Shown piece after piece: positions 28,962-57,000 of a stretch of DNA of 64,000 bases. The DNA is from Rhizorhapis sp. SPR117. GTDB taxonomy: Bacteria > Pseudomonadota > Alphaproteobacteria > Sphingomonadales > Sphingomonadaceae. The stretch is taken from assembly GCF_021742065.1 (NCBI RefSeq), contig NZ_JAKKIE010000001.1:124001-188000 (forward strand). Direction: 5' to 3'. The notes under the pieces were generated by a model. The model made no database searches. It was not told where the DNA came from and saw only the letters and a list, made by a program, of their open reading frames with translations. A program made the position numbers and the translations under genes. Position 1 is the stretch's first letter. Each line of letters begins with the position of its first letter.

Positions 28962-28977
28962 CGCAACATCTTTCAGT

Positions 28978-29012
28978 TAGATATTGCTAATATAGAATAT
29001 ACTAATATATAG
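28978..29012. promoter_or_regulatory. AT-rich BigR-type operator between divergent sulfur genes
   Basis: ATATT-GCT-AATAT (28981-28993) is a perfect short inverted repeat, followed by the near-repeat ATATACTAATAT (28997-29008). BigR-family operators are AT-rich palindromes overlapping the promoter, and this segment sits between the divergent repressor and hydrolase genes. The assignment is by symmetry, composition and position. Confidence 0.6.
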
Positions 29013-29035
29013 TCAAGGAACGAATGGAGGTTCTC

Positions 29036-36593: not shown

Positions 36594-36632
36594 GGCTCAA
36601 GCTCCTGCATGCGAATCCTTTCGATCATACTT

Positions 36633-36655
36633 CCATTGGCATAATATGCCAATGG
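36633..36655 (-). promoter_or_regulatory. parDE operator palindrome
   Basis: CCATTGGCAT-AAT-ATGCCAATGG is a perfect 10-bp inverted repeat 40 bp before the parD start. It overlaps the likely -10 region (CATAAT). ParD-type antitoxins autorepress through such sites. Confidence 0.75.
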
Positions 36656-36984
36656 CCAGGGCGACGACAGGTCTGCGGTGCCCATTGAACGCTGGCAGCA
36701 AAGTTGTCCTGCACGACGCCCACCCGGATCGAATACTCAGGCCGAGCAGCTTCTGGTCGAAAGCAGCCCGGAACTGCCGATTGTAGATCCACGTGATGCT
36801 GTTGGGGCGAACAGGCGCGGGCTGATCATGGCATGAAGGCGATGCGGGCAGACGTTGTGCATGTGCCGTGAATGGTTGCCAGCCGGCACTGTCGCTTAGA
36901 CCGCCGAATTTTCGGAGCCATCCCGCAGCCAACGGCCAAACGGGTCGGGCGGGCAACTCTAACCCTTATTTAACGAACCAATTC

Positions 36985-37001
36985 TACATCTTTTTGATGT
37001 A
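36985..37001 (+). promoter_or_regulatory. TACATC-N5-GATGTA palindrome before the pilus operon
   Basis: TACATC-TTTTT-GATGTA lies 79 bp before the first pilin start. The same palindrome (with ATTAT as spacer) lies 73 bp before the giant autotransporter at 44989-45005, and the DNA just upstream of both is also similar (TTTAAC...ACCAA). This strongly suggests one regulator for both loci. Confidence 0.7.
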
Positions 37002-37079
37002 AAGAACCGAGACGCGAGCTATGGAGGAAGAATGATGAATTCAGGGGTTAATCGACCCCCATCAGGAGATGGAGGAAAT

Positions 37080-37625
37080 ATGGGCATGATCAAGCAGGTG
37101 ATCCCGGCCGTCCTGGGTCTTTCGATCCTGGGCCTTCCCAGTATTGCGCATGCCGATATCACCGGAACGATCGATGCGACGATCACGCTTGAGAGCGGCT
37201 GCATCATCAATGGCGCCAATGCGGCCGACGGTGCAGGGAGTGTCGATTTCGGCGCGATCGATTTCGGAACCCAGACGACGCTCTTCTCCGAAGCCAGCGC
37301 CCAGGTCACGGGGACCGGCGCCGGCATCACCATCCAATGCACGGCGGGCGTGACACCCAATCTCATTTTTCAGACTGGGCTGCACGATGCGAACGCCTCG
37401 GGTTCCGGCAACAAGGCAATGCAACACACGTCCGTCACGACACAGTATGTTGCATATAATCTTTTGCGAGCGGACGACGTCACCGTGATCAACAATGGCG
37501 ATAACATCGCGCTCTCCGCCGATGGCTCCGAACAGACAATCATAGTCAATGGCCGCGCCTATGGCGCAGCCGGCCTAATTGCAGGCACTTACAACGATAC
37601 CGTCACCGTCGTGCTGGAACTCTGA
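37080..37625 (+). CDS. Spore coat U (SCPU) domain pilin, Csu type
   Basis: This 181-residue protein has a signal peptide (VIPAVLGLSILGLPSIAHA) and an SCPU domain: GTIDATITLESGCIINGA near the start, ITIQCTAGVTPNLIFQTG in the middle, and a C-terminal strand ending GTYNDTVTVVLEL. SCPU proteins are the subunits of archaic chaperone-usher pili such as Csu of Acinetobacter, with conserved Cys pairs and donor-strand assembly. Start ATG 37080 follows GGAGGAAAT; an ATG at 37032 would give a non-signal leader. As first gene with the shared palindrome upstream, it is probably the major subunit. Confidence 0.88.
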   Translation: MGMIKQVIPAVLGLSILGLPSIAHADITGTIDATITLESGCIINGANAADGAGSVDFGAIDFGTQTTLFSEASAQVTGTGAGITIQCTAGVTPNLIFQTGLHDANASGSGNKAMQHTSVTTQYVAYNLLRADDVTVINNGDNIALSADGSEQTIIVNGRAYGAAGLIAGTYNDTVTVVLEL

Positions 37626-37657
37626 CGCAGGGGTTGTGAAGAGCGGCGGGTCACGGC

Positions 37658-38206
37658 ATGCATCGCCTGACAGGGAAACATGCCTGGCCGCCGATATTCG
37701 GCTTATGGGCTCTCATGGCCATGCCTGGCCCTGCCCAAGCCGATACAACCGCATCGTTCGAAGTATCGGCAACCATCGTCGCCGGATGCGCAGCCGACGG
37801 GGTCGGCACGAGCGGCGATGCCGGCCTGATCGGCACACTGGACTTCGGCAATGATACGACCCTGTCCACGGCCAGCCATAGTGCCGCGCTTACGGGAAAC
37901 CAGATGATTACCCTGCGCTGTACGCCAGGCGTCGCACTCAGCATGAGGCTCGGAGGTGGCCAGCACGCAAGCGGCGGCAATCGAAACATGCAACTCGGAC
38001 CATCGACCGCGGATCGGCTGCCATATCGCCTATACGCCAATGCGGGGATGACGGACGAGATCACCATAGATCAGGACCGGTCGATCCTTGTGACGGCAGC
38101 CAATATGAACGACGTGCAATTGCATGTTTACGGCCAGGTTTCGCTCCCCGGAGGGAGCGCTGCGGGAACATATACCGACACTTTGCTGGTCACCCTGACC
38201 TGGTGA
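37658..38206 (+). CDS. SCPU-domain minor pilin
   Basis: This 182-residue exported protein has a signal peptide (IFGLWALMAMPGPAQA) and an SCPU domain (TASFEVSATIVAGCAADG, MITLRCTPGVALSMRLGGG) ending GTYTDTLLVTLTW. The two cysteines align with those of the preceding pilin. It is the second gene of the Csu-type operon, 32 bp after the first, and fits a CsuA- or CsuB-like minor subunit. Confidence 0.88.
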   Translation: MHRLTGKHAWPPIFGLWALMAMPGPAQADTTASFEVSATIVAGCAADGVGTSGDAGLIGTLDFGNDTTLSTASHSAALTGNQMITLRCTPGVALSMRLGGGQHASGGNRNMQLGPSTADRLPYRLYANAGMTDEITIDQDRSILVTAANMNDVQLHVYGQVSLPGGSAAGTYTDTLLVTLTW

Positions 38207-38237
38207 AACACGGTCGGATCTTGGGGGGAGTAAGCCT

Positions 38238-39029
38238 GTGATGCTGTGGCGGACAAGATTGTGCCTTGGTGCGCTGTTGTTCCTGTTCGTCACGCTCGCT
38301 CCCGCCAGGCCGGTGCATGCCGCAGGATCAATCCTCGTCTGGCCGATCGACCCTGTCATCGAGCACGATCAGCAAGCCGTTGCCCTGTGGCTTGAAAATC
38401 GCGGCTCCAGATCTTCGTTGCTCCAGTTGCGGATACTGTCCTGGACCCAGGTCGATGGCGAAGACCGATATGCGGACCAGGAGGAAATTATCGGCACACC
38501 GCCGATGATCAGGATCGAAGCCGGGAAACGTCAAATGGTCCGGCTGACCCGAACCGTTCCGGTGCAGCCAGGCGTGGAACGGGCGTTCAGGCTGCTCATC
38601 GATGAAGTGCCCACCCATGCAGGGACCGATTCAGCTGAAGGGACGGGTCCATCCGTCGGTGTCCGCTTGCAGTTCCGCTATTCCATTCCCCTCTTCGTCT
38701 ATGGCGAGGGTCTGTGGTGGAAGCCGAGGGCCGACCGGAAACGCGATCCGGCGAGCGCCGGTCAACCGGAGCTTTCCTGGCGGATTGGTGCCCAGAACGG
38801 AAAATCATATCTGGAAATTCATAACATTGGACCGGTCCATGCGCGGCTGACCGGCGTTTATTTCAGGCATGGCGCCGGATCGACGACATTGGCCCAGGGA
38901 TTGCTCGGCTATGTGCTGGCGGGATCGAGTCTCCGCCGGCCATTGCCGGACGCGATCAAAGCGGACGCCATCCTGATGGCAACGATCAATGGCGGTTCAG
39001 AGGCGCTGGCTGTCGCGCCGGCGAAATAG
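38238..39029 (+). CDS. Pilus-assembly chaperone, PapD/CsuC type
   Basis: This 263-residue periplasmic chaperone has a signal peptide (FLFVTLAPARPVHA) and the two Ig-like domains of the family. The G1/F1 strand region is visible in KRQMVRLTRTVPVQPGVERAFRLLIDEVP and the second domain in YFRHGAGSTTLAQGLLGYVLAGSSLRRPLP. It holds pilin subunits by donor-strand complementation and delivers them to the usher encoded next. The GTG at 38238 is followed by ATG at 38241; either could start the protein, with GGGGGAG just upstream. Confidence 0.88.
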   Translation: MMLWRTRLCLGALLFLFVTLAPARPVHAAGSILVWPIDPVIEHDQQAVALWLENRGSRSSLLQLRILSWTQVDGEDRYADQEEIIGTPPMIRIEAGKRQMVRLTRTVPVQPGVERAFRLLIDEVPTHAGTDSAEGTGPSVGVRLQFRYSIPLFVYGEGLWWKPRADRKRDPASAGQPELSWRIGAQNGKSYLEIHNIGPVHARLTGVYFRHGAGSTTLAQGLLGYVLAGSSLRRPLPDAIKADAILMATINGGSEALAVAPAK

Positions 39030-39045
39030 ATGCCGGACGCATTCT

Positions 39046-41442
39046 ATGCAAAAGGGAAGCGTCTTCGAATGGAAACCGCGCCGGTGGCGGCTCAGGCTTA
39101 TGGCCTCGGCAGGATTATGCTCGATCTTTCATGCAAGCCCGGCCATTGCAAGCGGTGCCTGGTCCGGCTCTTCCCTCCCTCCGGCACCACAGGCAGAGCA
39201 GCCGGTCGACGAGGTGACGCTGCATCTGGAACTGGTCGTCAACAGGCTCCCGACCGGCAAGATCGTTCCGGCCTTGCTCCGCGGCGGCCGTTATCATGTG
39301 ACGGCAGCTGATTTGCGCAGTGTCGGCATTGCGGTCGAGGACGAGGACGCCGTCATGGTTGCCGTCGACTCCATCGCCGGTTTGCGCACCGAATATGACG
39401 CTACTACGCTACGATTGATGCTCTATGTGCCGGCTGAATGGCTGCCAGAGCAGAAAATCGGCAGCGACCGGCGCTATGATTACGCGCCCGCACGCAGCAG
39501 CCCGGGCTTGCTGATCAACTATGATGCTTATGCCAGCGACCCGGACCGGGGGGCGGCGAGTCTTTCCGTATGGAACGAACTGCGTGCCTTCGGATCGTTC
39601 GGCATTGTCTCGACGACCGGCGTGTATCGGGCGGCGTCCGGGGCCAGCGGGAAAGATGGCTTCAGGCGCTATGATAGCTACTGGCGCTATTCCGACGAGC
39701 GACACATGCTGACTTATGAAGCCGGTGATCTTCTCACGCGCAGCTTGAGCTGGGGCAGCACCATGCGTTTGGGCGGCGTCCAGATCTCGCGCGATTTTGC
39801 GATACGCCCCGATGTCATTACCTATCCCCTCCCCCAATTCGCGGGCAATGCTTCCGTCCCGTCGACCGTCGATCTCTTCATAAACGGCTATCGGGCTGAT
39901 GGTGCCGAGGTAAGGCCGGGTCCCTTCACCCTCACCAATGTTCCGTCCATCAATGGCGCCGGCGAGGCTGTCGTTGTGGTCACCGACGCGCTCGGACGGC
40001 AGGCATCGACCACAATACCCTTTTACGTCAGCGGCGCCCTGCTGCGCGAAGGCCTCTCCGATTTTGCTTTGGCGACGGGGTTTGTCCGACGGGACTATGG
40101 GCTGAAAAATTTCTCCTATGGCGCTGTCGCCGCCAGCGCATCCTTGCGGCGCGGCATGAGCGACACACTAACGCTGGAGCTTCATGGCGAAGCGGGCGAG
40201 CGGTTCGGGCTTGCCGGTGTCGGCGGGGTGGTTCGCCTGGGTAACATCGGCATCGTCAACACGGCCTGGAGCCATAGCCGATACAAGGGGCGCAGTGGCG
40301 ATCAATGGACCTTAGGATACCAGTATAGCGCGCGGAAGTTCAGTATGACGGCTCTGCATAGCAGGCGCAGCGCGGGCTTCGCCGATCTGTCTGTCTATGA
40401 TGCCGGATCCTTCAGCCTGAGCAGGCGAAGCACATCCATCACCGGCAGCGTTTCGCTGGACCGCCTTGGCAGTCTTGGCGCCGGCTATTTCGATACGCGC
40501 GCACGCGACGGAAAACGAACGCGTCTCGCCAATCTCTCATGGGGATTGCCGTTCTGGAAGAGCACAAGCCTCTATGCCTCGGCCAACCATGAGATCGGGG
40601 AGAGCAAATGGGCGGCGGCGCTTCAGCTGGTCATGCCCCTCGGCCGTGACCGGGGAACCGCGAGCAGCGGATTTGAGCGCAGCTCGGCCCGCGGCAGTTC
40701 CTGGCGCGTCAACTATAATCGCGCCGTACCGAGCGATGGCGGCATAGGGTGGAATCTCGGCTATGCCGAGGGCAGCAGAACAGAGCGCTATGCCCAGGCC
40801 GATCTCACCTGGCGCAACGATCTGATGCAACTGCGCGGCGGCGTCTATGGGGCAAACGGCGATTATACCCGCTGGGCCGGCGCAAGCGGCTCTATCGTCA
40901 TGATGGACGGATCGACTTTTGTCGCCAACCGGATCAACGACGCCTTCGCTGTCGTCAGTACCAATGGCGAGCCGAACGTGCCTGTCCGCTACGAAAACCA
41001 GCTGATCGGCAAGACCAATGGCAACGGTCATCTGCTGGTGCCATGGGCCAGTTCCTATTATCGCGCGAAATATGCCATCGACCCCCTGGGGCTTCCACCT
41101 GCGGTCGAAACTCCGATCGTGGAACAACGCGTCGCCGTGCGTCGCGGGAGCGGCTATCTTCTCGACTTTCCTGTGTCCCGGGTCGTAGCGGCGATGGTCA
41201 GGCTGCACGACACGACTGGAAAGCCCCTTCCGGTCGGCGCCGCCGTTGCAGTCAATGGCACGCCCGGCGCTTATGTCGGCTGGGACGGCATCGCCTATAT
41301 TGAGGGCCTTCAGGCGCAAAACAGGCTCATCATAACGCTCCCCCATGGCGGGACCTGTGCCGCATCATTCGACCTTGATGCGGCACCTGACCAGATCAGC
41401 AAGGTTGGGCCTTTGACCTGCCTGATGGAGAATGAGCCATGA
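39046..41442 (+). CDS. Outer-membrane usher, CsuD/FimD type
   Basis: This 798-residue usher has a signal peptide (LMASAGLCSIFHASPAIA), a periplasmic N-domain, and the large barrel with the plug region visible in FAIRPDVITYPLPQFAGNAS, VPSTVDLFINGYRADGAEV and FTLTNVPSINGAGEAVVVVTDALGRQ. Barrel strands rich in aromatic-Gly pairs follow, and a C-terminal domain ends with NRLIITLPHGGTCAASFDL. It forms the pore through which Csu-type subunits are secreted. ATG 39046 was chosen; the frame also extends upstream into the chaperone gene. It overlaps the next gene by 4 bp. Confidence 0.9.
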   Translation: MQKGSVFEWKPRRWRLRLMASAGLCSIFHASPAIASGAWSGSSLPPAPQAEQPVDEVTLHLELVVNRLPTGKIVPALLRGGRYHVTAADLRSVGIAVEDEDAVMVAVDSIAGLRTEYDATTLRLMLYVPAEWLPEQKIGSDRRYDYAPARSSPGLLINYDAYASDPDRGAASLSVWNELRAFGSFGIVSTTGVYRAASGASGKDGFRRYDSYWRYSDERHMLTYEAGDLLTRSLSWGSTMRLGGVQISRDFAIRPDVITYPLPQFAGNASVPSTVDLFINGYRADGAEVRPGPFTLTNVPSINGAGEAVVVVTDALGRQASTTIPFYVSGALLREGLSDFALATGFVRRDYGLKNFSYGAVAASASLRRGMSDTLTLELHGEAGERFGLAGVGGVVRLGNIGIVNTAWSHSRYKGRSGDQWTLGYQYSARKFSMTALHSRRSAGFADLSVYDAGSFSLSRRSTSITGSVSLDRLGSLGAGYFDTRARDGKRTRLANLSWGLPFWKSTSLYASANHEIGESKWAAALQLVMPLGRDRGTASSGFERSSARGSSWRVNYNRAVPSDGGIGWNLGYAEGSRTERYAQADLTWRNDLMQLRGGVYGANGDYTRWAGASGSIVMMDGSTFVANRINDAFAVVSTNGEPNVPVRYENQLIGKTNGNGHLLVPWASSYYRAKYAIDPLGLPPAVETPIVEQRVAVRRGSGYLLDFPVSRVVAAMVRLHDTTGKPLPVGAAVAVNGTPGAYVGWDGIAYIEGLQAQNRLIITLPHGGTCAASFDLDAAPDQISKVGPLTCLMENEP

Positions 41443-42482
41443 GCTGCCACACCGTCGCGGATCGGGGGCCATGGGTTCATATCCGCTGGCTCTGTCTTAT
41501 CTTCATCGCAATCATCGCGTTCCCGTCACCCGGTGCGGCGCAGACGTTCAAATATTGCACGGTTTCGAGCAGCGATGCCGATCTTGGCAGTCACAGCTCA
41601 TTCGATCTGGCATCGACCGGACAGGAAAGTGCAGGCGCCGGCGGCCTTGCCTGTACGCCGCCGCTGGCGTTGCTCAGCACGTCCTACATCAAGGTCAAGG
41701 TCGAGAGTTCAATGTTTCTGCTGACCGGCGGCCCCGATAACCAGACCATCCCGTTCACGATCTCCGCAACGCAGGGAGGCACGGCAATCGCCACCGGCAA
41801 TGAGTTCGACTTTACGAGTTTCCAGCTTCTCAATCTGTTTTCCGGTCCAGGAGGCAGCTTGCCGCTCTATGTCAAGACGCAGGCGCAGCCGGGGCTGCGG
41901 GCAGGCATTTACAGCGGGACCGTCAATCTGCGGTGGTATTTCTCGGTCTGTACGCTCGGGGTGCTCGTGATTTGCGACTTTTCGGAGAGCCCGGGATTTC
42001 AACGGCCGATTCTGCTCACGCCCCTCAACTGGGGGAGCGGCGTGCTCACCACAATGACGGTGACCATGATCGTCGAGAATGATTGCGCGATCGCAGCACC
42101 GGACCTCGACTTTGGCAGCGCGCCGCTCGCAGGCAGTTTCGCCGAGGCGACCCAGACGATCACTATCCGCTGCAGCGCCGGCGCCGCTTATAGCGTGGGC
42201 CTAAGCGATGGGAACAACTTCGATGGCGGATGGCGGCGAATGCGCCGCGCAGCGACGAGTGATTATTTGCGCTACGAAATTTACCAGGTCCCCTCTTCGG
42301 GTATCCGCTGGGGCAGTGTCGGCGCAGAGCGCCGCAGCAGCGCGGCGGCGCAGGTTAATCCCGGCATCTACGACGGCATCGTTCAGCAGGGTTTCACTTA
42401 TGGAGCCCGCATCGATCCGGCTCAAACAACCCCGCAAGTCGGGCATTATGTCGACAACATCGTTCTGGACATCGAGTTTTAA
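41439..42482 (+). CDS. Two-domain SCPU tip adhesin, CsuE-like
   Basis: This 347-residue protein has a signal peptide (IFIAIIAFPSPGAAQ) and two SCPU domains: an N-terminal one (FKYCTVSSSDADLGSHSS and FPF-type body) and a C-terminal one (VTMIVENDCAIAAPDLDFGS, IRCSAGAAYSVGLSDGNNFDGG, ending DNIVLDIEF). Two-domain subunits form the tip of Csu pili and carry the hydrophobic surface-binding fingers. It closes the operon 37080-42482 and is coupled to the usher by ATGA. Confidence 0.88.
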   Translation: MSCHTVADRGPWVHIRWLCLIFIAIIAFPSPGAAQTFKYCTVSSSDADLGSHSSFDLASTGQESAGAGGLACTPPLALLSTSYIKVKVESSMFLLTGGPDNQTIPFTISATQGGTAIATGNEFDFTSFQLLNLFSGPGGSLPLYVKTQAQPGLRAGIYSGTVNLRWYFSVCTLGVLVICDFSESPGFQRPILLTPLNWGSGVLTTMTVTMIVENDCAIAAPDLDFGSAPLAGSFAEATQTITIRCSAGAAYSVGLSDGNNFDGGWRRMRRAATSDYLRYEIYQVPSSGIRWGSVGAERRSSAAAQVNPGIYDGIVQQGFTYGARIDPAQTTPQVGHYVDNIVLDIEF

Positions 42483-42883
42483 GACCAGGAAACCTCCGAA
42501 GCTGTACTTTACGGCTGATGATCGGCAGCGTTTACAGGGCCTATACGGATTTGCCTGACCTGCCGCTGCTGATCACGTTCAAGATCCACGGTGCCTGGCC
42601 ATTGTTCGAGACCCGACATCTTCAACGCGCGCCGACCAACGACACCCTCTCCCTTGGCAGGGAATTTCAGGGAAATCTGCCAGGCCTTCTCGCCGAGGGC
42701 TCGCCTAAAAGATCGAACCCGGCGCCGGCGAAGTGCCAACTGCGACCAATCGGCACGCCGATGCCGACACCCTGCCGTCGCGCTACACCATCACGCGGGA
42801 CATGATCCATGAACCTTGTTATATTTGGCGGGAAAGTGACGTTATCGGGTGTATGCGTATCAGGCTAGGAAAGGTGGTCCCTG
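42483..42883. other. Intergenic, no supported gene
   Basis: About 400 bp between the pilus operon and the XRE regulator. Short open frames lack signals. An AT-rich stretch near 42812-42850 may be the promoter of the XRE gene. Confidence 0.45.
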
Positions 42884-43123
42884 GTGACAAGAGGCGTTCA
42901 GGATACACGCTATCAAAAGCTTCTCGCGGTGTTGATCGATGCCCGCCGCGAGATCGACTTGTCTCAGGCTGAACTCGCCAGCCAGCTTGGCAGACCTCAG
43001 CAATTTATCTCACGCTATGAACTCTCCAAGAGGCGGCTCGACGTCATCGAATTTGTTGATGTCGCAACGGTGCTCGGCCTTGATCCACCTGCTGAGCTCG
43101 CTAATGTACTGAAAAAGAAGTGA
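42884..43123 (+). CDS. XRE-family helix-turn-helix regulator
   Basis: This 79-residue protein is almost entirely a Cro/C1-type HTH: LLAVLIDARREIDLSQAELASQLGRPQQFISRYELSKRRLDVIEFVDVATVLGL. It starts with GTG at 42884 after AGGAAAGGTGG. Being the only regulator between the pilus operon and the autotransporter region, it is a candidate to control one or both, but no evidence connects it to the TACATC palindrome. A strong terminator hairpin follows 17 bp later. Confidence 0.85.
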   Translation: MTRGVQDTRYQKLLAVLIDARREIDLSQAELASQLGRPQQFISRYELSKRRLDVIEFVDVATVLGLDPPAELANVLKKK

Positions 43124-43139
43124 GGATTGTCGGCAGGCC

Positions 43140-43171
43140 ATTGCAGACATCACGCGCGTGACGTCTGCAAT
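43140..43171. terminator. 32-nt near-perfect hairpin after the XRE gene
   Basis: ATTGCAGACATCACGC pairs with GCGTGACGTCTGCAAT with one mismatch, followed by TTC. It separates the rightward XRE gene from the leftward sulfotransferase gene and can terminate from both sides. Confidence 0.7.
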
Positions 43172-43305
43172 TTCAGGCATCCCATCAGAGGCGGATTTGG
43201 AGATCTGCCGTATCGCGCAAGCTGTACCCCACTCAGGTTATTCCGAGCCGCTGAAGTGACGGTTTTCACATCGTGTGAAATGTTGGCGTGCTGCGGTTTC
43301 AACGC

Positions 43306-44841
43306 TCACTTTCTGGCAGATCCATTGAGACTCATTGCAAGGGGAGACAGCCACGGTTCATAATTGCGCCAGCGATCCAGACCAGACCTGTTGATCGGGG
43401 TTCGAACCTGTTGGGCACTTGGCGTGTGAACGGCCCGCGGATTCTCGTAAAAGCGCAGGCAGCACGGATCGAAGTCCAGGCCAAGATAGTCCAAAAGGCG
43501 GCGCACTTCCGCCTCGGGACTTTCCACCAGCTTTTCATAGTGCACCCGATGCACGCGCGCAGGCAGCACCGTATCCATATAGTCCATCATCCGCCTGTAG
43601 TCATTATAGTAGCAGCCGAGGTCATACAGGTCGGTCGGCAAACGACTTTCACGGTTGAAATAGGTCAAAAAGGTCGAAACGCAGCAGGAAAGCGGCTCCC
43701 GCCTGACATCCACGATTTTGGCGTTGGGCAGGATCAGATGAATAAGCGGGGCAAATCGCCAGTTCGCCGGCATCTTGTCCGTGAAGTAGCGGAGGCCGCT
43801 CCTTCTGTGCCGCCGCGTGGCATCCAGATAGCGTTGCCCCAGCACCTTCCTGTCGTTCGGCATGAGCCGAAAAAGCACATTGGGCAGAGATTTTCCTGAC
43901 GGGTCGTTGCCGGGAAGCGCTGCCGCAATCTCCTGAAGCTCGAACAGCTCGCCGGCCCCTTCCACCATCGGATGACTGGCAAGTATCTGCTCGACCAGCG
44001 TGGAACCCGAACGCGGCATGCCGATGATGAAGATCGCCTCATCGGAATCGTGTCCATAACCTCGGCGTTCGGCGAAGACCGATGGGGTCAGGATCTCCTC
44101 GTGCGCCAGCACGGTTTCCCGGATCGCTTGCGGATCATAGGGAACAACCGTTCCACGCAGGGCATTTGCTTGCCGATAATAGCCGAAGGATTGTTCAAAC
44201 CGGCCCTGATCGCCGCACGCCTTGCCGAGCGCGAACTGGATCTGGATCTTCTGGAACGGATCGCCGATCTGCGGCAATATCCGTTCCATCGCCTCAACAT
44301 CGTCATCGTCCAGCAGGATGGTGCGCAAATTGGCAAGCCCCCACCATGCGGCGCCGTTGGCGGGATCCAGTTGCAGCGACCGGCGATAGGCGGCAATCGC
44401 TTCGTCGGTTTGTCCCACAGCGCTCAGGCTGTTCGCATAATTCATCCACAGCACAGTGGCATTGGGTGCTCGCTCTACAAGTTCCCGATGGATCTTAAGC
44501 ACTTCCCCGGTACGGCGTTCGGCGGACAGAACACCTGATTTGATCGATAGCGGCCAGATGCTCTCCGGATCTGCGACGATCATCCGGTCGAGAAGCGTGA
44601 TGGCATCATCGGCCCGGCCAATTCGACACAGCAGTGATGACTGGTCCGTATAGGCGCCAATAAGTTCCCGGCGTCCGGCGGCGGTTTGCCGTAGCAATCG
44701 CTCGGCCTCGGCGAAGTGGCCGGTTGCGGCCGCTATCGCGGAAAGCAGGCGCAAGGCATCCGAATTATGCGGTGCTCTCGCCAGATGTGCACGGACGAGC
44801 GCTTCGGCCCGCGACAGGTCTCCGGCTTCCAGGAAGCGCAT
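43306..44841 (-). CDS. TPR-repeat sulfotransferase
   Basis: This 511-residue protein has N-terminal tetratricopeptide repeats (GDLSRAEALVRAHLARAPHN, TGHFAEAERLL..., VGQTDEAIAAYRRSLQLDP) and a C-terminal sulfotransferase domain. The PAPS 5'-phosphosulfate loop is GMPRSGSTLVEQ near residue 272, followed by HPMVEGAGELFEL, the 3'-phosphate motif region (IVDVRREPLSCCVSTFLTYF) and RVHRVHYEKLVESPEAEVRR. It would transfer sulfate from PAPS to an unknown acceptor. No signal peptide is visible. It is divergent from the giant autotransporter 236 bp away, so an envelope or adhesin-linked acceptor is possible but unproven. Confidence 0.88.
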   Translation of the reverse strand: MRFLEAGDLSRAEALVRAHLARAPHNSDALRLLSAIAAATGHFAEAERLLRQTAAGRRELIGAYTDQSSLLCRIGRADDAITLLDRMIVADPESIWPLSIKSGVLSAERRTGEVLKIHRELVERAPNATVLWMNYANSLSAVGQTDEAIAAYRRSLQLDPANGAAWWGLANLRTILLDDDDVEAMERILPQIGDPFQKIQIQFALGKACGDQGRFEQSFGYYRQANALRGTVVPYDPQAIRETVLAHEEILTPSVFAERRGYGHDSDEAIFIIGMPRSGSTLVEQILASHPMVEGAGELFELQEIAAALPGNDPSGKSLPNVLFRLMPNDRKVLGQRYLDATRRHRRSGLRYFTDKMPANWRFAPLIHLILPNAKIVDVRREPLSCCVSTFLTYFNRESRLPTDLYDLGCYYNDYRRMMDYMDTVLPARVHRVHYEKLVESPEAEVRRLLDYLGLDFDPCCLRFYENPRAVHTPSAQQVRTPINRSGLDRWRNYEPWLSPLAMSLNGSARK

Positions 44842-44988
44842 CGGATCAACAGGGCTATTCGCTTGGATGGCATCACCTCGCGCCTATGGGATTGTCGATC
44901 AAGGATATTCTGCCATGCATCATATGCGTGTGAATGATGACGGATAAACCCCTTCCGATCCGCCAGCTTTAACCAAATCATAATATTT

Positions 44989-45005
44989 TACATCATTATG
45001 ATGTA
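44989..45005 (+). promoter_or_regulatory. TACATC-N5-GATGTA palindrome before the giant autotransporter
   Basis: TACATC-ATTAT-GATGTA lies 73 bp before the autotransporter start and is directly followed by GGAACGACTG. It is the second copy of the palindrome seen at 36985-37001 before the Csu-type operon. It also lies about 150 bp before the divergent sulfotransferase start and could affect that gene. Confidence 0.7.
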
Positions 45006-45077
45006 GGAACGACTGTCTGATGGTGCTAGGCGCTCCGGATAACTGTGCGCGCGAAATCCGAACGAGGGGTAAATTTC

Positions 45078-48000
45078 ATGGTTGGAACCGGCAGGTCAGG
45101 CAAGCGTCGTCACGCATCCCGGATCGTTCCGCGTACCCTTCTTTGCAGCGCTTCGCTTGTTGCGGTCCTTGCCACGGGAATTCCCATGTCCGCTCACGCA
45201 GAGGAGCGTCACTGGGATGCCAACGGCACCGGTGTCGGGACCGGCGGGACTGGGACCTGGGACCTCGGCAATCTCAACTGGAGCCCCAGTGGCGATGGCG
45301 TCAGCGGCCCTTATGTTGCCCCTTGGGACAATAGTGCGCTTGACGACGGGGTTTTCGGGGGCACCGCCGGGACCGTCACCCTGGCCTCGCCGATCACGGC
45401 CCATAACCTGACCTTCAACACGAACGGCTATATACTCACCGGAAACACGCTGACTCTCGGCGGAACCGCGCCGACAATCTCCGTCGCCACCGGAACGACC
45501 CGGATCAACTCGATCGTCGCCGGCACGTCCGGTCTCACCAAGATGGGCGGCGGGACGCTACAACTCTATGGCACAAATACATTCAGCGGCAGCATCTCTC
45601 TTCTCGGCGGTTCTCTCTACGCAGCAACGGATGCAGGCCTTGGTGCGGCGACGAACACCGTCACGACAGCGGCGGGCTCCAGCGTCACACTCCGGATAGA
45701 TGGCGCCGGAACGGCGCGATCCATCGCGATCGGAGACGGCGGAACCCTGACCGTGTCCGGCGCCGGCATCGGCTCGGCGCTGATCAGCGGCAACGGCAGG
45801 GTGAGCGTCGCCCCCTCCAACAACGCGGCCAGCATTGTTCGCCTGTCGAACGATGCCAACAGCTATACTGGCGCAACGATCTTCAGTGGATGCAATGGTG
45901 TCTGCCTCGCCTATTTCTCCTCGATCGCCGATCTCGGCGTGGCAAGTTCGCTGGGGGCGCCGACCACGGTTGCCGACGGCACGATCGTCTTCAACCAGCA
46001 GAGCCAGTATTCCGACAGCATCATCTATATCGGCGATGGCGACATCTCGAACCGCAACTGGGATATCAACGGAAACGGTGCGAACATTCGCAACGAAGGC
46101 TCCGGCGCCCTGACGCTCACCGGAGATATCGACATCTCCGCAAACGGAAGTTTCTTTGCCACTTCAGCCGATATCAACCTTCTGGGCACTCTGAGCGGCG
46201 GCAGTTTCGTTTTCAACGTAACCAATGGCCAGACGGTTACTTTGGGGGACGCGAACAGCTTCACTGGAACGGCCTCGATCGGTGGGTTAGTGAAAGTCTC
46301 GACGCTGGCCGATATCGGCAGCGTCAGCTCACTAGGCGCCGGCACCAATATCAACATGAACGCCGGAACGGTGAGTTACACCGGCACGGGATCGGCCAGC
46401 AATCGGACATGGACGGCAAACGCCGCCAGCAATATCCTGAATGATGGAACTGGCGCTCTCGACCTGAGCGGTGATCTGACCTTTAATCCGGGCAACCCCA
46501 ATCCCGATAATCTGACCCTTGGCGGCAGTTTTTCGGGCGTCAACAGCTTTTCGGGCATCATCTCCGGCAACGGCAATCTGATCAGCGCCGGTTCGGGAAC
46601 CTGGCTGCTGAGCGGCGCGAATACGCATACAGGCATGGCCACCGTCAACAGCGGTACCTTGCGTGCCGGCCATGCCTCCGCCTTCGGGAATGCGACCGGC
46701 TTCACGATCAATGGCGGCACGCTCGACCTCAACAGCATCGACCTGACGGCTCCCATGATCGGCGGGACAGGCGGGACGATTGCGCTGGGCAGCGCGACGC
46801 TGACCGTCAAGGCGGCCACGGCGCAAAGCTACGCCGGCGGCATCACCGGAACCGGCGGCCTGACCAAAAGCGGCGCGGGCACGCTCACCCTGACCGGCGC
46901 CAACAGCTATAGCGGCGCCACGACGATCAATGGCGGCAAGCTGACACTCGACTTCGCGGGAGCCGGCGCGCCGGACAACAATATCATCTCTGCTTCCTCG
47001 CCGCTGCTTTTGTCGGGCGGCAGCATCGAGGTGCGGGGCGCCAATGGCGAAACCAACGGCCAGAGCTTCAATGGACTGACGGTCAGCGCCGGCAGCAATA
47101 CGCTTCGAGCGACCAGCGGCACGGGCGGCGCCGTCAATGTCAGTCTTGGGGCGATCAGCCGCACCGGCGGTCTCGTCAATTTCGTGCTGCCGGATGCCGG
47201 CGCCATCACGACGAGCAATGCCGACGGGGCGCTCGGCGGCTGGGCGACCATCAACGGGTCGGACTATGCCAAGGTTCTGGCCGGGGGTGTCATCGCTTTC
47301 GATGACACAGACTATACCAGCAAGGACAATGCCGCCACCTGGCTGACCGGCGAGATCATCAGCGATACCGATGGTCTGCCCGATACCGCATACTTCGGCA
47401 CAGTCAGCGGCGATGTATCTCTGGGCGGCCTGCGCTACACGGCCAACGCCGCTTCCACCGTCACGATCGGAGGGGGCAATACGTTAGGCGTCGATGGCAC
47501 CATCATCGTCGCACCGAGCGTTGGCGCGGCGAACCAGACGATCGCCGGCGGTTCGCTGACGGGCGGTGCTGGGGGTGGAACCCTGGGCGTCCAGCAGAAT
47601 GGCGCCGGGTTCTTCACGATCGGTTCGACGATCACCGACAATATGGGCGCGACATCCTTCGCAAAGGGGGGCACGGGCACGGTCGTGCTGACGGGCGCCA
47701 ACAGCTACACCGGTTCGACGACGGTGACCCAGGGCACCCTGCGGACGAACAATATCGGCAACGGCGGCGTCGCCAGTGGCATCGGGGCCTCCTCGTCCGA
47801 TGCGTCCAACCTCGTGCTTGAAGCGGGAACCCTGCAGTATGCCGGGGCGACCACCACTACGGACCGTGGCTTCACGCTGGTCAACGGCGGGGCCACGCGA
47901 ACGATTGACATTGCCGGTGGTACGAATCTGACCTTCACGGGCGAAGTAACCAGCCCAGACGATGCCGGCTTCACCAAGTTGAACTCTGGCACCCTGACCC

Positions 48001-51000
48001 TGGCAAACGCTGCGAACACTTACAGTGGCGTCACGACGGTTAACGGTGGCACGCTGGCTGTAACCACGCTGGCCAACGGTGGCCTCGCGAGCAGCATTGG
48101 CATGGCAAGCAGCGATCCGGCCAATATCGTGCTGGCCGGGGGGACGCTCGACTATCTTGGCGGTACCACCAGCAGTGACCGTGGGATTACGATTGGCGCC
48201 GGACACGGACGCATTGGTGTAAGTGACGCGGGCTCTGTACTTACCTTGACGGGAACGATCACAAGCTCAGGCTCAGGTGGTCTGCGCAAGGAGGGGTCAG
48301 GCACTCTGGTCCTGTCCGGGACCAACAGTTATGCCGGCGGTACGATTGTAAATGCGGGCACGTTGCGCGCCGGGGCGACCAATGTCTTCGGCGGCGGCGC
48401 GATGGAGGTCGCAGCAGGGGCGCTGCTCGATCTCAATAATTTCAACAATGCCGTGAGCACGTTGCAGGGGGCGGGCGACATCGCCCTCGGCTCCGGCACA
48501 CTTACGGTCAACAGTGTCGGTGTCTTTACCGGCAGGATCAGCGGCACCGGCGGCCTCACGCGTGCAGGCGCCTCCGTGTTCACCCTCAGCGGTTGCAACA
48601 ACAGCTATACCGGCGCGACCACCATCACCAACGGAACCGCGCTGTCCGTCGATTGCCTGGCCAATGGCGGCCAACTGAGCAGCATCGGCGCGTCGACCAG
48701 TAATCCGGACAGCCTGGTGTTCAGCAACGGCATCCTCATTTACACCGGTGGTTCGGTGACGACGGATCGCGGTTTCACGCTGGCAAGCAGCGTCGGCGCC
48801 ATTCGCGTGGACACCGACACGACCGTGCTGGAGTTCGCAGGCGAGATAATTGGCGTCGGCCAGTTGCGCAAGGATGGCCCCGGCACGCTTATCCTTTCCG
48901 GCGTGAACAACGGCACCAACAGCACGCGCATCACAGGCGGCATATTGCGGGCCGGATCGGCGACTGCGATCGGCAGCGGACCACTCACGCTCGACAATAT
49001 AGCGGGCGTTCTGCTGGACCTCGATGGTTATGACAATGATGTCGCCTTTTTCACCGGCGGCGGTGCCAATGGCGGGACGATTGATCTTGGCGGCGCAACG
49101 CTGACGATCAACGCGGGCAGCAGTCTTGCCAGCGCCAATTATGCCGGCGTGATCACTGGCAGTGGAAACCTCGTCAAGAATGGCGCCAGCACCAACATTC
49201 AGCAGCTTTCCGGCTGCGGCAACAGCTATGACGGCGCCACTGTCATAAATGGCGGCACCCTTGCCGTCGCCTGTCTGGGTGACGGCGGCGCCGCCAGCTC
49301 GATCGGCTCTTCCTCCGCGGATGCGGGCAACCTCGTGCTGAACGGCGGCACGCTGCGATATCTCGGCGCGGGCGACAGCACGAACCGACGCTTTACGCTC
49401 GGGTCTTCCGCCACGAGCAAGCTGGAAGCATCCGGCACCGGCGCGATCATCTTTGCGGATATGGCAGCGCTGACATTCTCAAGTCCCAACACCGCACAAA
49501 CCCTGACGCTTGGCGGCACCAATAGCGACAACAATATTCTGGCCCCGCAGATTACGAATAACGGCACAGGCATTACGCGCCTGACCAAGACCGACGCTGG
49601 CACCTGGATCCTCACCAATCCGAACAGCAGCTACACGGGCATCACCACGATCAGCGGCGGTGTGCTCGGGGTCGACAAGCTGTCCGACGGCGGCGTGGCG
49701 AGCAGCATCGGCGCCTCGTCTTCGGCGGCCGCGAACCTCGTCATCGGCAATGGCTCGACGCTCCGCTATACGGGCAGTGGCGACACCACCAACCGCCTGT
49801 TCACCCTCTCGTCCGGTGTGACATACATCGAGTCCTCGGGCACTGGCGCGATCGTGTTCACGGACACGGGTCCGGTTACGCTCGCCAACACCAATCAGGC
49901 GCGCACCATCGCGCTTGGCGGCACCAACACGGGTAACAACACGCTTGCCGGTTCCATCGGCAATGCGGGCACCGGCATCTCGACGCTGGCGAAGAACGAC
50001 AGCGGCACATGGGTGCTGACCGGCAATCACAGCTATACCGGATCGACCAATGTCAATGGCGGCATGTTGTTCATCGGCGGCGGCGGCACGACCGGGTCGG
50101 TGGCGAGCGGCACGGTCAACAATTTCGGCACGCTGGGTTTCGATCGCAGCGATGCACTGACCTATGCTGGTGCCATCGTCGGTACAGGGTCCGTCCTCCA
50201 ACAGGGAGCCGGCACGACCATCCTCACCGGTACGAGCAGCTATTCGGGCGGTACTACGATCAGCGCCGGCACGCTCCAGCTCGGTAATGGCGGCGCGAGC
50301 GGCAGCATTATCGGCGATGTCGTAAACGACGGCACGCTCACATTTAGTCGCAGCAACAGCTATGCATTTGATGGAATCATTTCCGGCAATGGCATCGTCT
50401 CCCAGATCGGCACGGGCACGACGGTTCTGACCGGCATCAACAGCTACACCGGCGGCACGCTGATTGACGCGGGCACGCTTCAGATTTCCGCCGATGCCAA
50501 CCTTGGCGCGGCATCCGGTGATGTGACGTTCGACGGCGGCACGCTGCACACCACCGCCAGTCTCGTGAGCGGTCGCGACATGGCGCTGACAGGCGCGGGA
50601 ACCATCCTCACCGATGCGGGCACGACCTTCAATCTCTCTGGCTTGATCTCGGGCGCAGGCGCGTTCACCAAATCGGGCGCGGGCACGCTGGTTCTGACAG
50701 CGGACAACACTTATACCGGCAGCACAACGATCAGCGCCGGGACGCTCCAGCTCGGTGACGGCGGCGCCAGCGGCTGGATCGAGGGCGATGTCGCGAACAA
50801 CGGCACGCTGATCTTCGACCGATCCGACAACAAGACGTTCGCGGGTCTGGTCTCCGGCTCAGGCGGCCTGATCCAGAACGGGTCCGGCATCATCACGCTG
50901 ACCGCCGACAACAGCTATGGCGGCGCGACCGTGCTGAACGCGGGCACGCTGCGAATCAACGGTGACCAGTCGGCTGCGACCGGCCTCACAACCGTGCACA

Positions 51001-54000
51001 ATGGCGCGACGCTGGGCGGTTCCGGCATCGTCGGCGGCAGCGTTCTGGTGGACAATGGCGGCACGCTGGCGCCGGGCAACAGCCCCGGCACACTGACGAT
51101 CGCCGGCAACCTTTCACTGTCCTCAGCCTCCATTCTGGATTTCGAGTTTGGCGAGGCTAATGTCGTTGGCGGCCCGCTCAACGATCTGATCGAGGTCGGC
51201 GGCAATCTCGTGCTTGATGGCACCATCAATGTCACGGTGCCGACGGGCGGCAGCTTCGGCGGCGGCATCTACCGCGTGTTCAACTATGGCGGCACGCTCA
51301 CCGACAATGGTCTCGATCTCGGCGCGATGCCGGCCGGCAGCAGCGTCGCGGTCCAGACCTCCGTGGCGGGGCAGGTCAACCTCGTCAATGCCACGGGCCT
51401 GGAACTGAGTTTCTGGGACGGCGGCGTGGGCCCGAAGATCAATGGCGTCGTCGATGGCGGCGCTGGCACCTGGCATCTTGGCGGCACCGACAACAACTGG
51501 ACGGATGCGGACGGCGGCATCAATGCCGCCTATGCCGATGGCAGCTTCGCCATATTCGCAGGTGCCGGCGATATCGTCACTGTGGACAATGGCGATGGTG
51601 CGGTCACGGCGTCGGGGATGCAGTTTGCAAGTGACGGCTACACGATCACCGGCGACGCGCTGACCCTCACCGATCCGCAATCGGTGATCCGCGTCGGTGA
51701 CGGCACTGCGGCGGGCGCGGGCTTTACCACGATCATCTCTGCGGAACTCACCGGAACCGCGCAGCTCGCGAAGACCGATCTCGGCACGCTCGTCCTCACC
51801 GGCACGAACAGCTATGCGGGTGGGACGCTGATCGAGGCCGGCACACTGCAGATCGGCGATGGCGGCGCCACCGGCAGCATCTTCGGCGATGTCGACAATG
51901 ATGGCACGCTGGCGTTCAACCGCTCCGATGACGTGACCTTTGCCGGTGTCGTCTCGGGCGGCGGCGATCTGGTGAAGCAAGGAGGCGGCGTCCTCACGCT
52001 TACGGGCGCGAACAGCTATGCGGGCGGTACGACGATCGATGCGGGCACGCTGCGCATTTCCAGCGACGCCAATCTCGGCGCCGCCACCGGCGGGATCACC
52101 TTCAACGGCGGCACGCTGAACACCACCGCCGATATCACCAGCAGCCGCGATGTGGTGCTGGCGGGCGGCGGCACGTTCCAGACCGGCGCGACCACGACCT
52201 TCACGCTGGGCGGCACGATTTCCGGCGCGGGCAGTCTGACCAAGACGGATCTCGGCCTGCTGATCCTGACCGGCACCAACGATTATACCGGCGGGACGAC
52301 GATCACATCGGGCAGGCTGCAACTCGGCGATGGCGGCACGACCGGCTCGATCACCGGTGATGTCACGAACAACGCCACGCTGATCTTCAATCGCTCGAAC
52401 GCCATGACCTTTGCCGGTGCGATCACGGGTACGGGCGTCGTCGAGCAGGTCGGCAGTGGCACCACGACCCTGACCGGCACGAGCGGCTATACCGGCCAGA
52501 CCCGCGTCAACAACGGCGAATTGCGGGTCGAGGGCAGCGGGAAGATCATCGGCACGAGCACCTTCCGCATCGCCGATGTCGCGGCGCAATCGGCAACGAT
52601 GACGGTGACCGGCCCGGACGCGGAAGTGGTCTCGACAGGCACCAGCATCGTCGGTGTCAGCGGCACCGGCATCCTGAACATCGAGAATGGCGGAAGTGTC
52701 CTGAGCGCCGCCCTCGGGCTCGGAACCAGCGTGAACGGCAACGGAACGGTCAACGTCCGCGGCGCTGGTTCCAGCCTCGGCACCACCGATACCGCACAAA
52801 TATTGACGATCGGCGTCGTCGGAACAGGCACGCTGAACGTTCTTGATGGCGGCACGGTTCAGGCCGCAAGTTCGGCACGGATCGGCACCTTGGGTTCAGC
52901 CCAGGGCACCGTGACCGTCTCGGGCGTTGGATCGCGGTTGGAAACGGCAACCGGGCTCACGCTCGCATATGGCGCTTCGACGACGGGCGTGCTGACCATC
53001 GCGGACGACGGCGAGGTCGTGATCGGCAGCGGCACGCTGACGATGGGGCCGGGCAATTCGACGCTCAACATCGGCGGGGCCGAAGGTGAGGCCGCGACCG
53101 GAGCGGGCACGCTGGCCGCCGCCAATGTCGTGACCAGCGCGAATGGCCGCATCAATTTCAACCACACCGATGCCGCCTATACCTTCGCGTCGCTGATCTC
53201 GGGCGCGGGCGTTGTGAACCAGAACGGCCCTGGCACGACGATCCTGACCGGTGTGAACAGCTACACCGGTGGCACGACGATCAACGCGGGCACACTGCAG
53301 ATTTCGGCGGACGCGAACCTCGGTGATGCCGCGGGGACACTGACGTTCGATGGTGGCAGGTTGCAAACCACCGCTGATCTCGCGAGCAGCCGTACTGTGG
53401 CGCTGGCGGGTGCGGGTACTATCCTGACCGATGCGGCGACCACATTCGACCTCAGCGGCCTTATCTCGGGCGCGGGCGCGCTGACCAAGGCGGGCACTGG
53501 CACGCTGATCCTGACCGCTGACAATGACTATACGGGCGGCACGACAATCACGGACGGCGTGCTGCAACTGGGCGACGGCGGAACCAGCGGTTCGATCCTC
53601 GGCGACGTCACGAACGACGGCACGCTGGTGTTCGACCGGTCCGACGACGTGAACTTCGCGGGGCTGATCTCGGGCAGCGGCGATCTGGTGAAGCAGGGTG
53701 CGGGCATCCTCACCCTGACGGCCGACAATGCCTACATTGGCGGCACAACCATTACGGCGGGCACGCTCCAACTCGGTAATGGCGGCACCAGTGGCTGGAT
53801 CCTCGGCGATGTAGCGAACGACGGTATTCTGGCCTTCAACCGGTCCGATGACATGGCCTTTGCCGGCCTGATTTCCGGCACCGGTGGTGTCGAGCAGAAT
53901 GGTTCGGGTATCGTCACGCTGACCGGCGCGAACAGCTATGCCGGCGCGACCGATGTGAATGCGGGCACCTTGCTGGTAAACGGCGACCAGTCGCTGGCGA

Positions 54001-57000
54001 CGGGTCTCACCAGCGTGGCTTCCGGTGCGGTGCTGGGCGGCGCGGGCATCGGCGGCGGCGATGTCAATGTCGCAGCCGGGGGCAGCATCAATCCCGGCCT
54101 TGCGGATGCAACCCCGGGCGTTCTCACGATCAACGGCGGTTTGTCGCTCGCCGGTGGCGCCACGCTCAATTTCGATTTCGGCCAGGCCAACACCGTGGGC
54201 GGCGCGTTCAACGATCTGATCGCCGTCGGCGGCGATCTGGTGCTTGGCGGCACGCTCAATGTTGATACGAGCGCGGGCGGCACCTTCGGGCCCGGCATCT
54301 ACCGTGTCATCAACTATGACGGGACGCTCAGCGGGCCCGGCCTAGCCATTGGCAGCATTCCGAGCGGTACGGACTTCTATGTGCAAACCTCGGTCGCCAA
54401 TCAGGTCAACCTGATCAACACGAGCGGCCTTGCGCTTCGCTTCTGGGACGGCGCGGCAGGTGCTCGCAACGACGGCGTTATCACCGGCGGCGACGGCATC
54501 TGGCAAAATGTTACAGGCAATGACAACTGGACGCTCGACGATGGCTTGATCAACGCGCCGTTCCTCGACAGCGCCTTTGCCGTCTTCCAGGGTATGGGTG
54601 GCACGGTCACGGTCGATGATAGCCTGGGCGCCATCAATGTCGCCGGGATGCAGTTCGCGGTGGATGGCTATACGGTCGAGGGCGGCCGGATCGATCTGGC
54701 CGGGCCGCAGGCGATCATCCGCGTGGGCGACGGCACCATTGCGGGAACGGGCTATACGGCCACCATATCGTCGGAACTGGCCGGTTCGGCGCAGCTTGCC
54801 AAGACCGATGCGGGCACGCTGATCCTGACGGGGACGAACAACTACACGGGCGGCACGGCGTTGGGCGGCGGCGTGCTGCAGATCGCGGCGGACGCCAATC
54901 TGGGCGATGCGGCAGGCGGCCTCGATTTCGACGGCGGCACGCTGCAAACCACGGCCGACATCCTCTCTGGCCGCGACGTCACGCTGACCGGCGCAGGCAT
55001 GATCCTGACCGACGCGGGCACCGCCCTCGCACTGTCCGGCGCCCTCTCGGGTGCAGGCAGCCTCGGCAAGAGCGGTAGCGGTACGCTGGTGCTGTCGGGC
55101 ACAGGCGGCAACAGCGGCGGCATGAACATCGGCGCGGGCACAGTGTTCGTAAACGGCGATTATGCAGCCTCGACCGGACTCACCGATGTTGCTTCGGGTG
55201 CATCGCTCGGCGGCACGGGAATCCTTGGAGGCAATGTCTCGATTGCTGACGGCGGCACGCTGACGCCGGGGGCGGGCGCAGTGGGCACGCTCACCATCGG
55301 CGGCAATCTGACGCTCGCCTCGGGGAGCCTGCTCGAGTTCGAGTTCGGTGAAGCCAATGTGGCAGGGGGGGCACTGAACGATCTCGTCGAGGTCGGCGGC
55401 GACCTCGTGCTCGACGGCAGCATCAATGTGACCGTCCCGACGGGTGGCAGCTTCGACGCCGGTATCTACCGTGTCTTCAACTACGGCGGCGCGCTGACTG
55501 ATAATGGTCTCGATATTGGCCTGATGCCCGCGGGCGGCGACGTCTCGGTCCAGACCTCAATCGAGGGCCAGGTCAATCTCGTGAACAGCGCCGGGCTCAC
55601 CCTCAATTTCTGGGATGGCGCGGCCGGTCCCCGGAACAACAGCGTCGTCAACGGCGGCGATGGCCTCTGGCAGGACAGCACCGGAAACGACAACTGGACC
55701 GACGCGACGGGCACCGTGAACGCACCCTATACCAATGGCGCCTTCGCGATCTTTGCCGGAACCTCGGGTATAGTCGATGTGGACAACAGCCTGGGTGCCG
55801 TCATGGCTTCGGGCATGCAGTTCGCGACCGATGGCTACACGATCACAGGCGACAGCCTGACGCTCGTGGGACCGGCATCGGTGATCCGCGTCGGCGACGC
55901 CAGCATGGCCGGAGCCGGCTATACCGCTACGATCACAGCGGAACTGACCGGCGGCAGCCAGCTTGTGAAGACAGATGCGGGCACGCTCGTGCTGTCTGGC
56001 GCGAACAGCTACACCGGCGGGACCGCCATCAACGGCGGCACCCTCACCATCGCCAGCGATGCAAACCTTGGCGACATCGGCGGCGGTCTCAGCTTCGATG
56101 GCGGCACGCTTCATACGACCGCAGGCATGGCCTCGGGCCGCGCCGTCGATCTTATCGGGGCAGGCGCCATCAGGGCCGATGGCGGCACCATGCTCACCCT
56201 GAACGGCCTCGTTACAGGTGCAGGCAGTTTCGCCAAATCCGGCGCGGGTACGCTCGTGCTCACCGCTGACAATAGCTATACCGGAGCCACGGCAGTCGAT
56301 GCCGGCACCCTCTTCGTCAATGGAGACCAATCGGCCGCAACCGGGCTTGCCAGCGTGGCCTCGGGCGCGATGCTGGGCGGTAACGGGACAATTGGCGGCA
56401 ACGTTATCCTTGCCGATGGCGCCACACTGGCGCCGGGCGCGGGTGCAGTGGGCACGCTCACCATCGGCGGCAATCTCACGCTGGCCTCAGGCAGCCTGCT
56501 CGATTTCGAGTTCGGACAGGCCAATGCCGTTGGCGGCGCGCTCAATGATCTGGTTGAGGTGGGCGGCAATCTCACCCTCGACGGCACGATCAATGTCGCG
56601 GTTCCGGCTGGCGGCGCGTTCGATGCAGGCATCTACCGGGTGTTCAACTATGGCGGCATGCTGATCGACAATGGCCTTGCTCTCGGTACGATGCCGGTCG
56701 GCAGCAACACCATCGTCCAGACCTCGGTCGCGGGTCAGGTCAATCTCGTCAACAGCGCCGGGCTTACGCTCAATTTCTGGGATGGCACGGCGGGTATCCG
56801 GAACAACGGCGCCATTGAGGGCGGTGATGGCCTCTGGCAGAACAGCGCCGGCGACGACAATTGGACCGAAGCCACCGGCGCGGTGAACGCGGCCTATGCC
56901 GACGGCACCTTTGCCATATTCAGCGGCACCGGCGGGAATGTCACCGTGGACAACAGCCTTGGGGGAGTCACCGCCGCGGGCATGCAGTTCGCGGTCGATG

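What the first reader, a model, noticed from the sequence alone, without database searches (positions are those of the whole stretch)
36985..45005. Identical palindrome before a pilus operon and a giant autotransporter
TACATC-N5-GATGTA occurs at 36985-37001 and 44989-45005, 79 and 73 bp before the start codons of the first pilin and of the autotransporter. The flanking DNA just upstream is also similar (TTTAAC followed by an ACCAA-type stretch). I did not notice it elsewhere in the window. A shared regulator of two surface-adhesion loci, about 8 kb apart, is the simplest reading. The regulator is not known; the XRE gene at 42884 lies between them.
Basis: partly seen in the sequence, partly recalled or inferred. 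Interest (0 to 1): 0.75.

Follow-up and report, generated by a model that had tools for sequence, protein, structure and literature searches.

The report
Shared promoter palindrome, two adhesion loci
In a sphingomonad bacterium the same 17-letter mirrored DNA word sits just before a pilus operon and before a giant surface protein gene, probably a landing site for one shared but unidentified regulator; at the giant gene it stands where four related bacteria carry an RNA switch for the signal molecule c-di-GMP.

Summary
TACATC-N5-GATGTA occurs twice in the window, 78 and 72 bases before likely ATGs of a Csu-type pilin (37080) and a 4,623-aa PATR autotransporter (45078). A near-identical 4.8-Mb genome (G001) holds exactly two exact copies, at these loci. 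Chance: about 3e-4 against the genus background, 12 of 500 shuffled sets in a look-elsewhere test. Flank similarity is not above chance without the palindromes. No loose regulon is seen.

The site is not conserved: exact sites occur in 2 of 93 other genus genomes, both in long open frames, and none lies before the pilins of five relatives. New: four family relatives with a related autotransporter (two with the same divergent neighbour) all carry a c-di-GMP-I-type riboswitch before it; the window has none and its leader does not align with theirs. Best reading: a lineage-specific operator for a dimeric regulator co-controlling both loci, at the autotransporter in place of c-di-GMP RNA control. 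The binder is unknown; the XRE gene is weakly supported.

The parts
36985..37001 (.). Palindrome 1, TACATC-TTTTT-GATGTA
   Evidence: with palindrome 2 the only exact copies in G001
44989..45005 (.). Palindrome 2, TACATC-ATTAT-GATGTA (8-bp arms with a 1-nt centre)
37080..37625 (+). First pilin, SCPU domain (Csu-type)
   Evidence: Pfam PF05229 3.9e-17
37658..38206 (+). Second SCPU pilin
   Evidence: Pfam PF05229 6.4e-29
38238..39029 (+). PapD-type periplasmic chaperone
   Evidence: Pfam PF00345 6.7e-17
38989..41442 (+). Outer membrane usher
   Evidence: Pfam PF00577 and PF13953
41439..42482 (+). SCPU protein with two matched stretches, likely tip adhesin
   Evidence: Pfam PF05229, 2 stretches; tip role inferred
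42884..43123 (+). 79-aa XRE-type HTH protein (candidate regulator, weak)
   Evidence: Pfam HTH_3 1.2e-07; frame read; homologues
43306..44841 (-). TPR-sulfotransferase gene, divergent from the autotransporter; shares its 236-bp intergenic region
   Evidence: Pfam Sulfotransfer_3 2.8e-44; homologue divergent at the same place in G510 (59%) and G608 (52%)
45078..58949 (+). Giant PATR-repeat autotransporter, 4,623 aa
   Evidence: Pfam PATR (26 stretches) and AC_1; no barrel family reported at E<=1e-3
58986..59741 (+). SapC-family gene just downstream of the autotransporter
   Evidence: Pfam PF07277 1.1e-62

Best explanation
The two 17-bp palindromes are operator sites for one dimeric helix-turn-helix regulator that sets transcription of the archaic (Csu-type) pilus operon and of the giant autotransporter together, and possibly of the divergent sulfotransferase gene. 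Half-site centres are 11 bp apart, about one helical turn, so each subunit would read one TACATC half. Shown: the sites, their uniqueness as exact words in a near-identical genome, their placing, and the absence of a riboswitch here where four related genes have one. Inferred: that a protein binds, that it is one protein, and whether it activates or represses. The binder is probably not encoded beside the loci. The site looks like a recent acquisition of this lineage; at the autotransporter it lies in a leader that in relatives holds a c-di-GMP-I-type riboswitch.
For: Two exact copies only in 4.8 Mb, both 72-78 bases before the first gene of a surface locus; P about 2.7e-4 for two copies against the genus background, before the shared position is counted. 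The exact sites of two other genus genomes (L006, L007) and the three 1-mismatch sites of G001 (L003-L005) lie in long open frames. Arms are identical while spacers differ (TTTTT, ATTAT), as recognition by a protein, but not mere hairpin formation, would require. Two other genus members (G004, G083) have a palindrome of their own, TTAGAC-N4-GTCTAA, at about -105 to -85 before the homologous pilin and once only in each genome: palindromic operators at such pilus promoters may be general even where the letters are not.
Against: Not conserved: absent before homologous pilins in five relatives and before the related autotransporter in four. No excess of sites with up to 2 mismatches on a slightly wider pattern (234 against 254 for the reversed control), so the regulon would be two sites. 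Look-elsewhere p is only about 0.024 within the window. No linked regulator fits: none of 12 GerE matches in G001 lies on the two contigs. In G004 and G083 the other palindrome occurs once, with no partner locus. G001 is near-identical and so gives no independent evolutionary test.
Confidence: 0.58

Rival explanations
1. Chance: two AT-rich upstream regions happen to hold the same inverted repeat, noticed after the fact.
For: 12 of 500 shuffled sets of 47 upstream regions contain some shared palindrome of this kind; not conserved in relatives; no wider regulon; flanks unrelated.
Against: Exactly two exact copies genome-wide, both at nearly the same distance before surface loci.
Confidence: 0.27
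2. The 79-aa XRE protein between the loci is the common regulator (a special case of the best explanation, so the odds overlap).
For: It is the only DNA-binding gene that I found between the two loci; HTH_3 proteins commonly bind short palindromes as dimers (general knowledge).
Against: No TACATC palindrome before its own gene; 7 clusters in a word-based protein search, its own included, one on a plasmid; none of these on the CR28 contig that carries the 83% pilin, though a diverged one could be missed; homologues in 13 other genus genomes at 36-56%, the G070 one about 1 Mb from its pilus locus.
Confidence: 0.12
3. The palindromes act in the mRNA leader as 5' hairpins (stability or translation) rather than as DNA operators.
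For: Each 37-nt stretch folds better than shuffles (z -2.38 and -2.90). In the pilus leader (95 nt, z -2.18) the left arm is predicted to pair with the Shine-Dalgarno region.
Against: Any inverted repeat folds so. The autotransporter leader as a whole does not fold better than shuffles (z -0.24). A hairpin would not need identical arms at two loci.
Confidence: 0.08
4. The palindromes are recombination or mobile-element sites, for example for inversion of the 8 kb between them.
For: Identical arms 8 kb apart; an insertion lies between the loci in G001.
Against: Central bases differ, flanks are unrelated, there are no further exact copies, and the two G001 contigs are consistent with the window's order and orientation around an insertion, though their linkage is inferred.
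Confidence: 0.03

Closest known systems
c-di-GMP-I riboswitch (Rfam RF01051; RF03167 in G608)
   Same: Stands in the leader of the related autotransporter in G510, G608, G550 and G544, so it occupies the regulatory place that the palindrome has in the window.
   Different: It is an RNA aptamer. The window has no match at gathering score, and 36600-45300 has none to it at E<=5.
Palindromic operators of NarL/FixJ-type response regulators (e.g. EvgA, NarL boxes)
   Same: Recalled boxes have TAC...GTA ends; here TACATC...GATGTA.
   Different: Recalled only: none of the 8 papers listed in a search with the EvgA box string holds it. None of 12 GerE matches of G001 lies on the two contigs.
Csu-type (archaic chaperone-usher) pilus operons
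   Same: SCPU pilins, PapD chaperone, usher, SCPU tip-like protein in one gene row.
   Different: The palindrome is not found before the pilins of five genus relatives. The 80 loci kept from one usher scan of GTDB contigs, 79 of them titled Pseudomonas, match at 50-55%.
PATR-repeat giant autotransporters of sphingomonads
   Same: Same repeat family, divergent sulfotransferase-TPR neighbour in G510 and G608.
   Different: Leader lacks the riboswitch. SapC follows it here but was not found in the downstream stretches read for G510, G608 and G544.

Membership tests
Shared operator / two-locus regulon | Same site before both loci, at similar distance | tested here: met
Shared operator / two-locus regulon | Site rare elsewhere in the genome | tested here: met
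   2 exact copies in 4.8 Mb of G001; own assembly not held
Shared operator / two-locus regulon | Conserved before the same loci in relatives | tested here: not met
   the closest pilus relative (CR28, 83% pilin) could not be read
Shared operator / two-locus regulon | A protein that binds both sites | not testable with these tools
   Needs bench work
c-di-GMP-I riboswitch control of the autotransporter | Aptamer in the leader | tested here: not met
   Window: none. Relatives found at E<=1e-90: 4 of 4
XRE autoregulated controller | Its operator also before its own gene | tested here: not met
   No site with up to 2 mismatches near 42884; sequence
NarL/FixJ-type box | Cognate GerE-domain regulator linked to the loci | tested here: not met
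   12 GerE matches in G001, none on contigs C43 or C78; an unlinked one is not excluded
Csu-type pilus operon | SCPU pilins, PapD chaperone, usher and SCPU tip-like protein in one row | tested here: met
Type Va autotransporter | Passenger repeats plus C-terminal barrel | tested here: inconclusive
   PATR and AC_1 found, barrel family not reported at E<=1e-3

The most novel reading that the evidence does not exclude
A regulatory swap: an autotransporter whose relatives carry a c-di-GMP-I riboswitch has in this lineage lost that leader and been placed under a DNA operator shared with a pilus operon. If the binder responds to c-di-GMP, the same signal would have moved from an RNA sensor to a protein sensor, tying two adhesins into one switch.
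Probability: 0.15. Interest if true: 0.75.

Novelty: new variant of a known kind. Interest (0 to 1): 0.5.

Why it matters
I found little in print, in an open-licence library only, on how sphingomonads control such adhesins: chaperone-usher with autotransporter with Sphingobium gave 2 papers; c-di-GMP-I riboswitch with Sphingo and adhesi, and GEMM riboswitch with Sphingopyxis, gave 0 each; of the papers listed for two of c-di-GMP riboswitch, autotransporter, alphaproteobacteria, none of the 10 shown holds the riboswitch term. A giant autotransporter with a c-di-GMP riboswitch in relatives, and with a possible protein operator shared with a pilus here, would be a natural case of one signal route being replaced by another, with genomes on both sides for tests.

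Tried and rejected
Flank similarity: not above chance once the palindromes are removed. Loose regulon: no excess. Order-wide search for ACATC-W5-GATGT: 12 of 396 genomes, 13 sites, reversed control 4 sites; of the 11 sites outside G001 nine lie in long open frames and two (L179, L182) do not. Plasmid origin: no near match for 36500-61400 in the plasmid collection. Pilus relatives: in 102 loci (L064-L165, which include the 80) 6 one-mismatch sites; the one in L067 lies within the usher stretch and the five Pseudomonas ones lie kilobases past the usher. Usher in genus g74: 0 of 6 genomes, with no positive control among them. Eleven SapC-linked regions of the genus (L075-L085): an open frame above 900 aa in 6 of 11, none with the window's upstream site, and no riboswitch in any. 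Literature search for the two halves of the word with promoter and regulator: 673 papers, 20 listed, none about such a site by title; passages of one, PMC7755780, show only primer sequences. Csu pili and SapC searches: listings only. Sigma-70 scan: nothing at either palindrome. EvgA box string: not in the 8 papers listed. Tree of 21 autotransporter N-termini (the window, 4 riboswitch relatives, 16 of the 120 proteins listed, chosen by me): the window falls with P0001, P0002, P0003, P0004 and P0006 (support 92/91), three riboswitch rows in another group (95/94), and G544 on a long branch whose place is unsure, so loss of the riboswitch in the window's line is likely but not proven. Apart from PMC7755780 (passages), papers were seen only as search listings with starts of abstracts.

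Full report
What was checked. TACATC-N5-GATGTA lies at 36985-37001 and 44989-45005 and nowhere else in the window. The genes behind are a Csu-type pilus operon (two SCPU pilins, PapD chaperone, usher, a further SCPU protein) and a 4,623-aa autotransporter with 26 PATR stretches and an AC_1 domain, followed by a SapC gene. Counting from the ATGs with a Shine-Dalgarno sequence (37080, 45078), 78 and 72 bases lie between.

Genome-wide. The window's own assembly is not held. The nearest genome, G001, is 100% identical over 3 kb at both sites and holds exactly two exact copies in 4.8 Mb; at up to one mismatch there are 5 sites against 2 for the reversed control. The three one-mismatch sites lie inside long open frames. 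With up to two mismatches on a slightly wider pattern there are 234 sites against 254 for the control: no loose regulon. Among 94 genus genomes exact sites occur in 3: G001 and two with one site each, inside long open frames. That background gives 0.023 expected in G001 and P = 2.7e-4 for two or more. A look-elsewhere test in the window gives 12 of 500 shuffled sets.

Flanks. With the palindromes in place the two upstream regions align better than all but 1 of 1000 shuffle pairs; with the palindromes removed 667 of 1000 do as well.

Relatives of the pilus. An usher homologue at E<=1e-40 occurs in 23 of 94 genus genomes, G001 included, the best other one at 49%. Eleven pilus regions were fetched. 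The five closest (L064-L068) were read before the pilin: no such palindrome, and no 17-mer with fewer than 4 mismatches in 400 bp. G004 and G083 share another palindrome, TTAGAC-N4-GTCTAA, at about -105 to -85; it occurs once in each genome and not in G001, G070, G050 or G051. In both a gene for a 220-aa protein lies upstream, the G083 one with an Hpt match below the curated cut-off. A scan of GTDB contigs with an usher alignment confirmed 426 stretches and kept 80 loci, 79 titled Pseudomonas and one a Paucimonas MAG, at 50-55%.

Relatives of the autotransporter. In a family sample of 397 genomes, 5 have the N-terminal 500 residues at E<=1e-90: G001 and four others. All four (G510, G608 and G550 at 65%, G544 at 51%) carry a c-di-GMP-I-type riboswitch before the gene (RF01051 in three, RF03167 just above its cut-off in G608), its core about 210-234 nt before the start codons. 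In G510 and G608 the gene is divergent from a TPR-sulfotransferase gene with 59% and 52% identity to the window's, above the best genus match of 45%, so these two loci are very probably orthologous. No sulfotransferase was found in the stretch read upstream in G544, and G550 was read for only about 1.3 kb, so there the relation rests on the protein alone. The window has no riboswitch at gathering score; at E<=5 the stretch 36600-45300 gave one irrelevant match; two stretches of G001 around the loci have none either. The window's 236-bp intergenic region does not align with those of the four relatives above shuffles. The tree leaves loss in the window's line likely but not proven; other members of its group are known here only as proteins.

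A decisive comparator exists but could not be read: a contig of 2,882,437 bases, named Sphingobium sp. CR28 in both listings, encodes an 83% identical pilin (P0122) and a 65% identical autotransporter (P0014). P0014 groups with G608 and G550. None of the 6 held genomes of that genus has the usher at E<=1e-60.

The regulator. The 79-aa XRE gene is an HTH_3 protein. A word-based protein search gave 7 clusters, its own included; one is on a Croceibacterium plasmid and none on the CR28 contig. Homologues at E<=1e-8 occur in 14 of 94 genus genomes, G001 included, at 56% or less outside G001. It has no palindrome of this type before its own gene. G001 has 12 GerE matches, none on the two contigs. 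I commit to an unlinked dimeric HTH regulator; that it is of NarL/FixJ type is only a recalled resemblance.

RNA alternative. Both short stretches fold as hairpins, as any inverted repeat would; the full autotransporter leader does not fold better than shuffles, the pilus leader does (z -2.18).

Verdict. A real, rare, lineage-specific pair of sites, probably a shared operator; function untested. The more interesting fact around it is the c-di-GMP riboswitch that four of four related genes have and this one lacks.

Noticed in passing
L227 3153-3228 (-), L228 1255-1330, L229 1110-1185, L230 1255-1334: c-di-GMP-I-type riboswitches before related giant autotransporters in four relatives, core about 210-234 nt before the start codons.
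   Followed up: yes
window 43175-43180: G001 appears to carry an insertion here: its two contigs stop matching the window with a 6-bp overlap; the extra DNA looks like an IS21-type istA/istB element next to an IS5-like transposase piece (names by eye). It lies between the two loci and leaves both promoters intact.
   Followed up: partly
L067 and L068, upstream of the pilin: Another palindrome, TTAGAC-N4-GTCTAA, shared by G004 and G083 before the homologous pilin and found once in each genome.
   Followed up: partly
window 20461-20536 (-): chrB-a cis-regulatory RNA, 79.9 bits.
   Followed up: no
window 43306-44841; L231; L233: TPR-sulfotransferase gene divergent from the giant autotransporter in the window, G510 and G608; a possible modifier of it (inference).
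   Followed up: partly
window 28644-29923 and L232 2100-3351: A similar ArsR-type regulator and metallo-beta-lactamase-like gene pair lies near the autotransporter in G510 too (by eye).
   Followed up: no
L064 2042-2112: A tRNA gene lies a few hundred bases before the pilus operon of G070.
   Followed up: no
   Followed up: partly
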